Below, in pieces: positions 44,042 through 52,304 of a stretch of DNA of 64,000 nt. The position numbers and the translations under genes are program-made. The notes beneath the pieces were generated by a model. That model did no database searches, was not told the origin of the DNA, and saw only the letters and a list, made by a program, of their open reading frames with translations. The stretch is from Pukyongia salina (GTDB lineage Bacteria; Bacteroidota; Bacteroidia; Flavobacteriales; Flavobacteriaceae). Every line of letters begins with the position of its first letter. Position 1 is the stretch's first letter. The stretch lies in the NCBI RefSeq assembly GCF_002966125.1, contig NZ_CP027062.1, positions 1,798,001 to 1,862,000 of the forward strand, in the 5' to 3' direction.

Positions 44042-45298
44042 TTACAGTCCAAATGCTTCTTTCACCTTATCCACATAATCAAGTTTTTCCCAGGTGAATA
44101 ATTCTACAGACAAGCTGGTTTCTGTATTATCAGGGGTTCTGAAAGTCTTGTGAACGATCTCGTTTTTTCGTCCCATATGTCCGTAGGCTGCGGTTTCGGA
44201 GTACATGGGCTGTCGTAATTTTAATCGATCTTCAATTGCCGAAGGTCTCATATCGAAAATTTCGGAGATCTTGGCCGCAATTTCACCATCGGTTAGATTT
44301 ACTTTGGAAGTCCCATAAGTATCAACAAAAATTCCCATAGGTTCAACCACACCAATAGCGTACGAAACCTGAACAAGCATTTCATCGCAAACGCCAGCCG
44401 CCACCATGTTCTTAGCGATGTGTCTGGTAGCATAAGCCGCAGATCTGTCTACTTTACTGGGATCCTTTCCACTGAAGGCTCCTCCGCCATGTGCGCCTTT
44501 TCCGCCATAGGTATCTACAATTATCTTTCTTCCGGTAAGCCCCGTGTCGCCATGTGGCCCGCCTATCACAAATTTTCCGGTAGGGTTGATATGATAATTG
44601 ATATTATCGTTAAAAAGTGCCTGGATCTCCGGCTTAAGTTGGGCCTTCACCCGAGGGATGAGTATACCAATAATATCATTCTTGATCTTTGCCAACATAC
44701 GTTCTTCGTTCTCATCGAAATCGTCGTGTTGGGTAGATAATACGATAGAGTCTATCCTTACAGGTTTGTTATCGTCGTTATATTCGATGGTAACCTGCGA
44801 TTTCGAATCAGGGCGCAGATATGTGATCTCGTTATTCTCGCGGCGAATAACAGCAAGTTCCTTCAATATTTTATGAGAAAGGTCCAGCGCAAGCGGCATA
44901 TAGTCGTCTGTTTCCCTGGTAGCATAACCAAACATCATTCCCTGATCCCCGGCACCTTGCTCTTCTTTGGTTGCCCGGTCCACTCCTCGATTGATATCCT
45001 CGGATTGTTCGTGGATAGCCGAAAGTACCCCGCAGGAATTTCCATCAAATTGGTATTCTCCTTTGGTATAGCCAATACGATTTATCACGTCCCTGGCGAT
45101 CTTTTGAACATCCAGGTAAATATTAGATTTAACCTCTCCTGCCAGTACTACTTGTCCTGTTGTTACCAGGGTCTCGCACGCAACCTTCGATTGAGGGTCG
45201 AAGGCGAGAAAATTATCAATAAGGGCGTCACTGATCTGATCTGCGACCTTGTCCGGATGTCCTTCAGAAACACTTTCGGAAGTAAATAAATATGCCAT
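44042..45298 (-). CDS. metK: S-adenosylmethionine synthetase
   Basis: A 418-residue enzyme that makes SAM from methionine and ATP. Family signatures are complete: [28 protein letters not shown], and [16 protein letters not shown]. It is cytoplasmic and acts as a homotetramer in the family. The start is an ATG at 45298. A SAM-II-type riboswitch (45362..45412) lies in the leader after a clear promoter (TACATTTG at 45421), so expression is probably reduced by its own product. It is convergent with the response regulator gene. Confidence 0.95.
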
Positions 45299-45328
45299 AA
45301 ACGATGTAAATAATTAAATATTCGCGGG

Positions 45329-45338
45329 AAGATTTGAC
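45329..45338 (-). promoter_or_regulatory. segment complementary to the SAM-II core (candidate expression platform)
   Basis: In the metK leader RNA this segment reads GUCAAAUCUU, the exact complement of AAGAUUUGAC inside the riboswitch (45396-45405). Including neighbours, 12 of 13 positions pair. The two structures are mutually exclusive, so this could be the switching partner. It lies about 30 bases before the metK ATG and has no U-run, so translational control or RNA stability is more likely than termination. Confidence 0.55.
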
Positions 45339-45361
45339 GAACCTATGGAAGGAAGTTTACA

Positions 45362-45412
45362 CTGCCTTTAGCATTTTTTATCGAGGTTGCAATCAGTCAA
45401 ATCTTTCCTCTT
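45362..45412 (-). ncRNA. SAM-II-type riboswitch in the metK leader
   Basis: On the minus strand the leader reads GAGG, then the conserved AAAGAUUUGACUGAUUGCAA, CCUC, and AAAAAAUGCUAAAGGCAG. This matches the SAM-II (metA) consensus: short P1 (GAGG/CCUC), a GAUUUGAC loop, UUGCAA, and a 3' segment UGCUAAAG that forms the pseudoknot. ACUG can pair with CAGU and GCA with UGC for the second helix. It starts only a few bases after the predicted transcription start. SAM binding would lower metK expression. Confidence 0.8.
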
Positions 45413-45420
45413 CGAGCGCA

Positions 45421-45428
45421 CAAATGTA
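45421..45428 (-). promoter_or_regulatory. Bacteroidota -7 promoter box for metK
   Basis: TACATTTG (minus strand) matches TAnnTTTG perfectly. The expected transcription start (about 45414-45416) places the SAM-II riboswitch at the very 5' end of the mRNA. Confidence 0.65.
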
Positions 45429-45453
45429 CACAAATCCTCATAATTTAAAAAGT

Positions 45454-45987
45454 TTATTGCCTTTTTAAAACAGCCCTCTGAACAGTAGAAACGGGATATG
45501 AGATCACCTCGGTTCTTTCATCATTTTCTGCATAGGTGGTCCGTGCGTTTTCACGCCTGGCAGCCGCTATTTCGAAGATCATGTGATCTTCCTTGAATGT
45601 GATAAAAGTGGTGAGCAAAGTGCCTTGTACTTCGAATAAGGCGTACATCCTGTTGTCCACAACTTTATCATCAAGCAAAATACCATTGTTCTCGTCTACT
45701 AGGTATTCTCCCTTTGCTTTATTCAATGTGCGTAAAGTATAATTTCTTTGCTGCCAGCTATCTCCTTCACCGTACACAAGAATATATTCGAACGTATCCA
45801 TACTATCTGTTGCCTTCAGGTGAAATTCCATGGTAATCTCCTGAGTGCCGCGATCCGAATTGATATTCAGTTTTCCTTTGTAAACCCCTAGAAAATCATC
45901 GGGAAAGACCGAAGAAACATCGTTTTGCGCAAAGGAAATCGCAGTAGTGATAATACCGGCAAGGATGAGATGAATGAAGCGCTTCAA
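45454..45987 (-). CDS. exported protein of unknown function
   Basis: I start at TTG at 45987, giving LKRFIHLILAGIITTAISFAQ, a good signal peptide of about 20 residues; the longer frame begins with GTG and would add a second hydrophobic stretch. The mature 155 residues are beta-rich (DFLGVYKGKLNINSDRGTQEITMEFHLKATDSMDTFEYILVYGEG), with WQQRNYTLRTLNKAKGEYLVDENNGI. I recognise no family; a lipocalin-like or calycin fold is possible. It is upstream of metK on the same strand but has its own gap with the metK promoter. Confidence 0.65.
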   Translation of the reverse strand: MKRFIHLILAGIITTAISFAQNDVSSVFPDDFLGVYKGKLNINSDRGTQEITMEFHLKATDSMDTFEYILVYGEGDSWQQRNYTLRTLNKAKGEYLVDENNGILLDDKVVDNRMYALFEVQGTLLTTFITFKEDHMIFEIAAARRENARTTYAENDERTEVISYPVSTVQRAVLKRQ

Positions 45988-50882: not shown

Positions 50883-50912
50883 TACTCATAAAGTTCAAAC
50901 TTTTACTGAAGT

Positions 50913-51016
50913 GTTATCAAGAAAGGTGGAGGGATTAGACCCTGTGAAACCTTAGCAACCCTTTCTCCGGAATGAAGGTGCTAAATTCTACACAGCTTAG
51001 GCTGATGATAGATAAC
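50913..51016 (+). ncRNA. SAM-I (S-box) riboswitch before metB
   Basis: GTTATC (50913-50918) and GATAAC (51011-51016) form P1. Between them are the conserved SAM-I blocks AAGAAAGGTGGAGGGA, TGAAACCTTAGCAACC, and AAGGTGCTAAATTC, in the right order and spacing for the four-way junction. It is followed by a hairpin at 51020. SAM binding would lower expression of metB and the downstream genes. Confidence 0.95.
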
Positions 51017-51019
51017 AAC

Positions 51020-51134: not shown

Positions 51135-52304
51135 ATGAGTGCAACAAAAATTATTCATGCGATCCCAAGTGATCCGCTTACCGGGGCTATTTCTGTACCG
51201 GTCTATCAAACTTCAACTTTTATTCAGGAAGCGCCTGGTGTGAACAAGGGCTTCGACTATGCCCGCTCTAACAATCCAACCCGTAAGGTGCTGGAAGATG
51301 TGATCGCCGAATTGGAAGGTGGCGATGCCGGTTTTGCCTTCTCTACCGGACTTGCGGCCATCGACGCCGTATTAAAACTCTTATCGGCCGGAGATGAGAT
51401 CGTGGCAGTAGATGATATTTACGGTGGTGCCTACAGACTTTTTACCCACGTCTACGAAAAACTTGGTATTAGTGTGAACTATGTGGACACAACCGAGGTG
51501 GACAATGTGGCTGCCGCTGTTAATGAAAAGACCAAATTCATCTGGATAGAATCTCCAACAAATCCTACCCTAAAAGTTTCAGATATCCGCGCTATTGCCG
51601 CAATAGCTGCACAAGTTGGAGCATATCTTGTGGTGGACAACACTTTTGCCAGTCCCATCGGGCAAAACCCTATTTCCCTGGGGGCCGATATTGTTATTCA
51701 CAGCGGTACCAAATATATTGGAGGCCATTCAGACCTGGTAGCAGGACTTGTGGTCACCGCTGCGCCGGAGCTTTCAGAAAAAATAAAATTTGTGCAGAAT
51801 GCCTCTGGAGGAGTATTGGGTCCCTGGGATTGTTTTCTTACCATACGCGGTATCGAAACCCTGGATATCCGGTTTAGAAAACAATCTGAAAATGCCTTAT
51901 CAATAGCGCGATTCCTGCAACATCATCCCGAAGTTGACGAGGTGTTCTATCCGGGTCTGGATACCCATAAAAATCATCACATCGCAGCCAGACAACAGAA
52001 TAATCTGTTTGGCGGTGTGGTTTCATTCAGTTTAAAAAACGATTCCACTGATGTAGCAAATGCCTTTGTTACCCACACCAGGTTCTTCAAATTGGCGGAA
52101 AGTCTGGGAGGGGTGAAAAGTCTGCTATGTCATCCGGCTCAAATGACGCATGCCTCTATCCCAAGGGATCGTAGACTGCGGTCGGGAATTAAGGATTCAC
52201 TCATTAGACTATCCTGCGGAATAGAAGAACCACAGGATCTAATAGAAGATCTGAATACTGCCTTTAAAAGCGTCAATACAGCAACCCAATTAATCTATGC
52301 CTGA
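51135..52304 (+). CDS. metB: cystathionine gamma-synthase-type transsulfuration enzyme
   Basis: A 389-residue PLP enzyme of the Cys/Met metabolism family. PLP Lys193 is in SGTKYIGGHSD; YARSNNPTRKVLE and the C-terminal SLGGVKSLLCHPAQMTHA are conserved. It makes cystathionine from an activated homoserine and cysteine, though O-acetylhomoserine sulfhydrylase or lyase activity cannot be excluded from sequence alone. It is the first gene behind the SAM-I riboswitch and overlaps the next gene by 8 bp. Confidence 0.9.
   Translation: MSATKIIHAIPSDPLTGAISVPVYQTSTFIQEAPGVNKGFDYARSNNPTRKVLEDVIAELEGGDAGFAFSTGLAAIDAVLKLLSAGDEIVAVDDIYGGAYRLFTHVYEKLGISVNYVDTTEVDNVAAAVNEKTKFIWIESPTNPTLKVSDIRAIAAIAAQVGAYLVVDNTFASPIGQNPISLGADIVIHSGTKYIGGHSDLVAGLVVTAAPELSEKIKFVQNASGGVLGPWDCFLTIRGIETLDIRFRKQSENALSIARFLQHHPEVDEVFYPGLDTHKNHHIAARQQNNLFGGVVSFSLKNDSTDVANAFVTHTRFFKLAESLGGVKSLLCHPAQMTHASIPRDRRLRSGIKDSLIRLSCGIEEPQDLIEDLNTAFKSVNTATQLIYA

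What the first reader, a model, noticed from the sequence alone, without database searches (positions are those of the whole stretch)
45329..45412. metK leader holds a downstream segment complementary to its own SAM-II core
The SAM-II-type aptamer (45362-45412) contains AAGAUUUGAC, the most conserved part of the SAM-binding loop. Only about 60 bases later the leader contains its exact complement GUCAAAUCUU (45329-45338); with neighbours 12 of 13 positions pair. If the long hairpin forms, the aptamer cannot. SAM-II aptamers usually act by hiding an adjacent ribosome binding site, but here the aptamer is about 60 bases from the ATG. This suggests a different expression platform in which a decoy strand competes with the pseudoknot.
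Basis: partly seen in the sequence, partly recalled or inferred. Interest (0 to 1): 0.75.

Follow-up and report, generated by a model that had tools for sequence, protein, structure and literature searches.

The report
Anti-aptamer strand in SAM-II metK leader
The RNA leader of a SAM-making enzyme gene carries, next to its SAM sensor, a built-in strand that can pair with and disable the sensor; many related bacteria keep this strand and change it in step with the sensor, so it is probably the working part of the switch.

Summary
GUCAAAUCUU (45338-45329) is the exact complement of the SAM-II core AAGAUUUGAC (45405-45396). In this window alone it is only mildly improbable (41 of 3000 shuffles reach a 10-nt match). 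Relatives decide. In 177 SAM-II/metK leaders the aptamer 5' strand pairs with its own downstream leader at -17.5 kcal/mol on average, against -11.3 for shuffled and -15.2 for swapped leaders. Exact GUCAAAUC stands in 42 of 102 leaders with core GAUUUGAC (0.17 expected), and neighbouring letters change in step (A-U to G-C). 13 of 17 later-fetched leaders agree. So the leader has two exclusive folds: SAM-II aptamer, or a rod that hides both aptamer strands. SAM dependence is untested, and how the released strands lower metK is unsettled here: one small-genome clade has a clear start-codon sequestor, the window's genus does not. A new variant of a known kind: known aptamer, with an expression platform not found in the papers searched.

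The parts
44042..45298 (-). metK, methionine adenosyltransferase (418 aa)
   Evidence: ORF; NCBIfam TIGR01034 509 bits over cut-off 309, three S-AdoMet_synt Pfam domains
45421..45428 (-). TACATTTG, match to the Bacteroidota -7 box TAnnTTTG (consensus recalled, not from a call); would place the transcript start at the 5' end of the aptamer
   Evidence: TAnnTTTG lies within 50 nt upstream of the core in 163 of 174 leaders (shuffled expectation 10.4), its end 16-24 nt before the core in the 5-95% range
45358..45416 (-). SAM-II aptamer
   Evidence: Rfam RF01726, 61.9 bits, model positions 1-60
45396..45408 (-). aptamer 5' strand, GGAAAGAUUUGAC; outer stem of the rod, 5' side
   Evidence: sequence; duplex tests
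45327..45338 (-). anti-core GUCAAAUCUUCC; outer stem of the rod, 3' side
   Evidence: exact in 6 of 7 same-genus leaders, one U.G wobble in the seventh; covariation
45361..45368 (-). aptamer 3' strand AAGGCAGU; inner hairpin of the rod, 5' side
   Evidence: RNAalifold picks this hairpin unprompted in 32 close leaders
45357..45360 (-). GUAA tetraloop (GNRA) of the inner hairpin
   Evidence: CAGU-[GNRA]-(A/G)CU in 31 of 177 leaders, mean 0.47 and max 2 in 200 shuffles
45349..45356 (-). ACUUCCUU; inner hairpin of the rod, 3' side, with a C.U 1x1 mismatch at 45364/45353 whose 3' letter is U, A or C but never G in the GG-type relatives
45299..45326 (-). A/U-rich stretch between the rod and the metK start, not conserved in sequence

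Best explanation
A two-state SAM switch for metK. The transcript begins at the aptamer. If SAM is plentiful while the next ~30 nt are being made, the SAM-II pseudoknot forms and is locked. If SAM is scarce, the later-made anti-core (GUCAAAUCUUCC) invades the SAM-binding 5' strand while ACUUCCUU pairs with the 3' strand, giving a nested rod in which no aptamer can exist; the rod ends 28 nt before the AUG here and leaves the start region open, so metK is made. Shown computationally: the competing pairings, conservation and covariation of both halves of the rod, a promoter-like box at the expected place. Inferred: SAM dependence, the rod as ON state, kinetic choice between the folds. Unsettled for this window: how release lowers expression (pairing with the start region, as in the UUGCUUU clade, or Rho, or loss of a helpful structure).
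For: 177 leaders: own pairing -17.49 vs shuffled -11.34 (sd of the 60 means 0.21) and swapped -15.18 kcal/mol (sd 0.17, lowest of 2000 permutations -15.78); the reversed-strand control shows nothing (-10.22 vs -10.28, sd 0.13). 123 of 177 individually p<=0.05; later-fetched set 13 of 17. With CAAAT as an anchor that ignores the flanks (82 of 170 leaders vs 34.2 shuffled), core -1 A faces U in 41 of 56, G faces C in 15 of 19; with CARAT (92 of 177), paired 77.5% vs 62.6% permuted, max 71.9, at core -1, and 92.3% vs 86.0%, max 90.1, at core 0. Exact GUCAAAUC 42 of 102 vs 0.17. Inner hairpin, where ACU-N-C-N-U was found: 3'-strand GG with C 33 of 33 (38 GG leaders), AG with U 27 of 31 (96 AG leaders); GNRA caps 31 of 177. 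Independent pairs on a metK DNA tree, all branches, same/opposite: 6.9/1.0, 5.9/0.2, 7.8/0. Growing window RNA: core pairs downstream with P 0.09 at 82 nt and 1.00 at 86 nt; joint fold 10-14 kcal/mol better than aptamer (no pseudoknot) and leader folded apart in 6 same-genus leaders. Two metY-type leaders carry the arrangement (L027 p=0.003, L256 p=0.023).
Against: Nothing here measures SAM response or expression. The bound state is not predicted to close the start region in the window's genus (-20..-1 unpaired 0.645 apo, 0.615 bound, p=0.47, n=7). 54 of 177 leaders are not significant and 4 of 17 later ones; L193 has lost the anti-core. Only core -1 and core 0 exceed all 500 permutations; the other flanking positions do not (core +7 59.8% vs 53.4%, max 60.9; core -2 61.8% vs 58.8%). 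Single changes in GUCAAAUC: 9 leaders with a G.U-type change (0.91 expected) but also 11 with a pair-breaking one (3.79 expected), 9 of the 11 observed breaks being at the end letter G. On well-supported branches the tree test has 5, 4 and 6 pairs and no site is significant alone. In the closest 32 leaders pairing is 91.8% vs 91.5% for column shuffles (28-53% for slid partners), and RNAalifold picks P1 plus the inner hairpin, not the outer stem. For L033 the MFE is not the rod. The 3'-strand energy barely beats swapping (-6.41 vs -6.22, sd 0.08). SAM-II leaders of genes other than metK and metY: 0 of 5 at p<=0.05.
Confidence: 0.72

Rival explanations
1. (Output of the switch) Rho: the SAM-bound state frees two C/U-rich, G-poor strands that Rho can load on; the rod masks them.
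For: The downstream leader has more C than G (0.201 vs 0.103 over 177 leaders; 0.224 vs 0.106 in the genus); region -40..-21 opens from 0.335 to 0.532 unpaired on release; no start sequestor in the genus and no terminator-like site in the window leader.
Against: C-richness follows from complementarity to a purine-rich strand; no Rho site was tested; no background set of other leaders was compared.
Confidence: 0.3
2. (Output of the switch) Translation: a strand freed by SAM pairs with the start region (sequestor), the rod being the anti-sequestor.
For: Of 19 leaders with UUGCUU right after the aptamer, 14 carry AAAGCAA in the last 30 nt before the AUG, complementary to the strand that otherwise pairs with the aptamer 3' strand; over 171 leaders own switch/start pairing is -5.72 vs shuffled -5.09 (sd of means 0.11) and swapped -4.93 (sd 0.15). 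Over all 177, -20..-1 falls from 0.582 to 0.551 unpaired, p=0.0017. In the window CCAUA (45348-45344) can pair UAUGG over the AUG.
Against: Only 25 of 171 leaders are individually p<=0.05. The window's CCAUA/UAUGG pairing is in 2 of 7 same-genus leaders, two near-identical ones (read); group I accessibility at -20..-1 does not fall (0.602 to 0.614, p=0.56).
Confidence: 0.4
3. A DNA-level inverted repeat, an operator for a protein, not an RNA pairing.
For: The two arms are an inverted repeat and are conserved.
Against: At the six inner letters of GUCAAAUC tolerated changes are G.U-type 6 times, pair-breaking twice; GNRA caps and a kept 1x1 mismatch are RNA features; one arm is the SAM-binding core itself, downstream of the promoter-like box.
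Confidence: 0.04
4. The rod is a folding competitor that only tunes the SAM threshold; the aptamer itself lowers expression.
For: In group I the anti-core is kept while sequence from there to the AUG is not; I found no common second structure there.
Against: The aptamer ends 59 nt from the AUG, far for direct blocking of a ribosome (inference); the anti-core lies at a fairly even distance from the AUG (median 21 nt, 5-95% 12-39, in the 123 significant leaders), which suggests a positional role.
Confidence: 0.2
5. Chance complement in an A/T-rich leader.
For: In the window alone 41 of 3000 shuffles reach it.
Against: The family-wide tests.
Confidence: 0.01

Closest known systems
SAM-II riboswitch, Bacteroidota long-loop form (RF01726; Weinberg 2010, PMC2864571, passages seen)
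   Same: Aptamer sequence and structure model; Bacteroidetes.
   Different: The passages found in the main text list it in a table and send details to Additional File 1, which could not be read; they describe no expression platform. Here a covarying alternative fold is described.
S. meliloti metZ and metA SAM-II riboswitches (PMC9373788, start of abstract and passages seen)
   Same: SAM-II aptamer with a downstream platform; metA concerns translation at a distance.
   Different: metZ is predicted to form a Rho-independent terminator when SAM is bound, metA to make a Shine-Dalgarno inaccessible; the passages describe no strand pairing with the SAM-binding core. The window leader has no terminator-like site and no Shine-Dalgarno by eye.
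Antisequestor/antiterminator platforms of other OFF riboswitches (PMC2258182, passages seen)
   Same: Ligand binding disrupts a mutually exclusive pairing.
   Different: There the exchange strand is commonly the aptamer's closing stem (recalled); here both strands of a pseudoknot aptamer, including the most conserved core, are taken into the alternative fold.

Membership tests
SAM-II riboswitch (RF01726) | Covariance-model score above gathering, whole model matched | tested here: met
   61.9 bits vs 44, positions 1-60
SAM-II riboswitch (RF01726) | Upstream of a SAM/methionine gene | tested here: met
   metK starts 59 nt downstream; 190 of the 225 metK loci held also have the aptamer, but these were fetched for SAM-II or metK, so this is no frequency
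SAM-II riboswitch (RF01726) | Binds SAM | not testable with these tools
   needs probing or calorimetry
SAM-II with intrinsic-terminator platform | G+C-rich hairpin and U run between aptamer and gene | tested here: not met
   0 terminator-like sites in window 45200-45500 (simple consensus scan). In relatives only T runs were counted: six or more T in 37 of 177 leaders
SAM-II with adjacent-SD platform | Shine-Dalgarno within or beside the aptamer, close to the AUG | tested here: not met
   59 nt from aptamer to AUG and no purine-rich SD before 45298, by reading only
Antisequestor/sequestor translational platform | Freed strand pairs with the start region in the bound state | tested here: inconclusive
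   supported for the UUGCUUU clade (14 of 19); not supported for the window's genus

The most novel reading that the evidence does not exclude
A lineage-wide, previously undescribed expression platform: in these Flavobacteriaceae-like bacteria, which as a rule lack Shine-Dalgarno leaders (recalled), SAM-II controls metK by exchanging the pseudoknot for a rod that swallows both aptamer strands, and the output is neither a terminator nor SD occlusion but exposure of the released pyrimidine-rich strands (to Rho or to the start region, by clade).
Probability: 0.4. Interest if true: 0.72.

Novelty: new variant of a known kind. Interest (0 to 1): 0.58.

Why it matters
SAM-II is found in 283 of 299 genomes of the window's family (Flavobacteriaceae by its named relatives), yet the papers I could search describe no regulatory output for it there. 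The finding supplies a concrete two-state model with named strands, explains why leader segments downstream of the aptamer are conserved, and makes the question of riboswitch output in bacteria with few Shine-Dalgarno sites directly testable. It also suggests that the most conserved core of a riboswitch can serve as one half of the switching helix.

Tried and rejected
Whole-leader MFE z-score as evidence: not informative (z -0.46). A short upstream ORF inside the aptamer (AUGCUAAAGGCAGUGUAA): considered by eye, dropped because a number of leaders lack the in-frame stop (sequences). Start-codon sequestor in the window (CCAUA/UAUGG, UGUAAA/UUUACA): not kept across the genus. Intrinsic terminator in the window leader: none by consensus scan. 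Covariation inside the closest 32 leaders: columns nearly invariant, not above column shuffles. A protein tree gave similar pair counts on all branches (13, 7 and 10) but few well-supported ones (4 each): same/opposite 2.3/1.1, 3.4/0.1, 3.8/0; I then used the DNA tree. My regular expression for non-metK SAM-II leaders matched nothing and was widened. The P1 column printed used a wrong index and is ignored.

Rows left out: of 227 loci, 2 had no metK (L005, L027) and 35 no recognisable SAM-II aptamer by my pattern; 190 leaders became 182 distinct; 5 were dropped by hand as pattern misfits (L059, L079, L095, L101, L105), leaving 177 (one search used a stricter pattern and 170). Of the 25 new loci, three were already in the set, four (family f17) did not match my pattern and one had no metK, leaving 17; in two of these (L235, L237) the pattern cut too early, so the tested stretch includes the tail of the aptamer, and 9 of the 17 come from one genus (g128). 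For one search, 32 of the 35 group I leaders were aligned; L050, L058 and L074 were left out by hand because of their long loops. Regions fetched were chosen by hand from the listed, best-scoring SAM-II hits, about one per genus, so weak aptamers are under-sampled. The 177 are distinct, not independent.

Full report
WHAT IS THERE. metK (45298-44042, minus strand) is preceded by a SAM-II aptamer at 45416-45358 (RF01726, 61.9 bits). A TAnnTTTG box at 45428-45421 sits just before it; such a box lies within 50 nt upstream of the core in 163 of 174 leaders against 10.4 expected, so the aptamer is probably the first RNA made (the box as Bacteroidota -7 consensus is recalled). Taken alone it is weak: 41 of 3000 shuffles of the downstream leader reach a 10-nt perfect match to the aptamer.

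RELATIVES. SAM-II was found in 283 of 299 genomes of the family, 7 of 7 of the genus, and 26 of 198 drawn from the phylum. The family has a code, not a name; Flavobacteriaceae is inferred from the named relatives. In the seven same-genus leaders the anti-core GUCAAAUCUUCC is exact in six and GUCAGAUCUUCC (one U.G) in the seventh, while the eight or so letters before it and most of what follows up to the AUG drift. I collected 177 distinct SAM-II/metK leaders (selection and drops in Tried and rejected).

OUTER STEM. Pairing energy of the aptamer 5' strand with its own downstream leader averages -17.49 kcal/mol; with shuffled leaders -11.34 (sd of the 60 means 0.21); with other genomes' leaders -15.18 (sd 0.17; 2000 permutations, lowest -15.78). 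The same strand reversed gives no own-versus-swapped difference. 123 of 177 leaders are at p<=0.05 with 300 shuffles each, and 13 of 17 fetched afterwards, 9 of them one genus. Outside Flavobacteriales the share is lower: 8 of 17 Bacteroidales and Marinilabiliales leaders. Among 102 leaders with core GAUUUGAC, 42 hold exact GUCAAAUC downstream (0.17 expected). Of the rest, 9 hold a form with one G.U-type change (0.91 expected) and 11 a form with one pair-breaking change (3.79 expected). At the six inner letters the changes seen are 6 G.U-type and 2 breaking; at the end letters, 9 breaking at G and 3 G.U-type at C. With CAAAT as an anchor that does not use the flanking letters (82 of 170 leaders, 34.2 expected), the flanks follow the core: core -1 A/U 41 of 56 and G/C 15 of 19. 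With CARAT (92 of 177 leaders have just one), core -1 is paired in 77.5% against 62.6% when leaders are permuted (max 71.9) and core 0 in 92.3% against 86.0% (max 90.1); the other flanking positions do not exceed all permutations. A leader from a Prolixibacteraceae record (L139) has core GAUUUGUGAA and downstream UUCACAAAUC.

INNER HAIRPIN. The aptamer 3' strand has its own partner. In the window AAGGCAGU (45368-45361) - GUAA - ACUUCCUU (45356-45349) forms seven pairs around one C.U mismatch. A GNRA cap closed by (A/G)CU follows CAGU in 31 of 177 leaders (GUAA 20, GCAA 7, GAAA 3, GAGA 1; mean 0.47, max 2 in 200 shuffles). Where a partner ACU-N-C-N-U is found within 45 nt, its second N is C in 33 of 33 leaders whose 3' strand reads GG (38 such leaders in all) and U in 27 of 31 that read AG (96 in all); the first N, opposite the mismatched C, is U 24, A 5, C 4 and never G in the GG type. 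RNAalifold finds this hairpin unprompted in 32 close leaders, together with P1 and not with the outer stem. Its energy is better than shuffles (-6.41 vs -5.14, sd 0.11), but own versus swapped is weak (-6.22, sd 0.08), as the 3' strand hardly varies.

INDEPENDENCE. On a DNA tree of metK, independent pairs over all branches go the predicted way in 6.9, 5.9 and 7.8 cases and the other way in 1.0, 0.2 and 0 (core -1, core 0, 3' strand). On well-supported branches only there are 5, 4 and 6 pairs, 3.0, 2.7 and 4.7 the predicted way and 1.0, 0.1 and 0 the other way; no site is significant by itself. Within the closest 32 leaders the columns are nearly invariant, so pairing (91.8%) does not exceed column shuffles (91.5%), only slid partners (28-53%).

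MECHANISM. The two halves make one nested rod that uses up both strands of the pseudoknot; aptamer and rod exclude each other (inference from base use). In the unconstrained ensemble the core pairs downstream with probability over 0.5 in 120 of 177 leaders. In folding of growing window RNA this probability goes from 0.09 at 82 nt to 1.00 at 86 nt, some 30 nt after the aptamer is complete; the joint fold is 10-14 kcal/mol better than aptamer plus leader folded apart in six same-genus leaders, without counting pseudoknot or ligand, though the MFE of L033 is not the rod. Without SAM the -40..-21 region is mostly paired (0.335 unpaired), on release 0.532; -20..-1 is 0.582 and 0.551. In the 123 significant leaders the anti-core ends a median 21 nt before the AUG. 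Since metK makes SAM, SAM should lower it (established logic of SAM riboswitches), so the rod is taken as the ON state. The clearest output is in small-genome relatives, where UUGCUUU pairs either with the aptamer 3' strand or with AAAGCAA just before the AUG (14 of 19 leaders with UUGCUU): anti-sequestor and sequestor. The window's genus has no conserved sequestor and the window leader no terminator-like site, so translation, Rho or simple tuning stay open.

OTHER GENES. Of seven SAM-II leaders that are not before metK, two before metY-type genes carry the arrangement (L027 p=0.003; L256 p=0.023) and five do not reach 0.05 (L005 0.359, L253 0.721, L254 0.256, L255 0.076, L257 0.233). The genes of L027 and L005 are named; the others are read from resemblance of the translations.

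LITERATURE. Eight library searches listed no paper that, by title, abstract start or the passages I opened, treats the expression platform of Bacteroidota SAM-II. Seen as passages: PMC2864571, PMC2258182, PMC9373788, PMC1273637, PMC12121620, PMC3723493; the rest only as listings. Supplements were not readable and subscription papers are mostly not held, so absence from print is not shown.

VERDICT. A real, conserved, covarying alternative fold: a new variant of a known kind. Its regulatory output and its SAM dependence need experiment.

Noticed in passing
window 50911-51018 (+): A SAM-I riboswitch (78.3 bits) precedes a Cys/Met PLP-enzyme gene (51135-52304) in the same genome as the SAM-II. 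A 2007 survey (PMC2258182, passage) found no species with both classes; here SAM-I is in 94 of 120 family genomes, and 91 of those 94 also have SAM-II (not G048, G066, G118).
   Followed up: partly
G101:C1:2736104-2736395, also G005:C15, G009:C20, G027:C6, G038:C4, G097:C2, G107:C8, G117:C13: SAM-II and SAM-I aptamers stand back to back, 126-310 nt apart on opposite strands: divergent units read by two SAM sensors of different class. Only these eight were checked by eye from the listed places.
   Followed up: no
L194, L195, L044 and 16 other leaders, between the inner hairpin and the anti-core: GACG-loop-CGUC, at its longest UUUGACG-loop-CGUCAAA: a copy of the core's letters that can hold the anti-core in a local hairpin; in 19 of 177 leaders. 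Absent from the seven leaders of the window's genus.
   Followed up: partly
L244, L248, L250, L251: Leaders of another family of the class (code f17) have a different SAM-II-like architecture (e.g. GUGGAUUGAUUUGCG and an extra hairpin) that my pattern missed; their downstream strands were not tested.
   Followed up: no
L005; by resemblance of the first ORF also L254, L255, L257: A SAM-II leader stands before a preQ1-synthase (queF) gene; in L005 a metH start follows two ORFs later. A queF gene behind a SAM sensor is unexpected.
   Followed up: no
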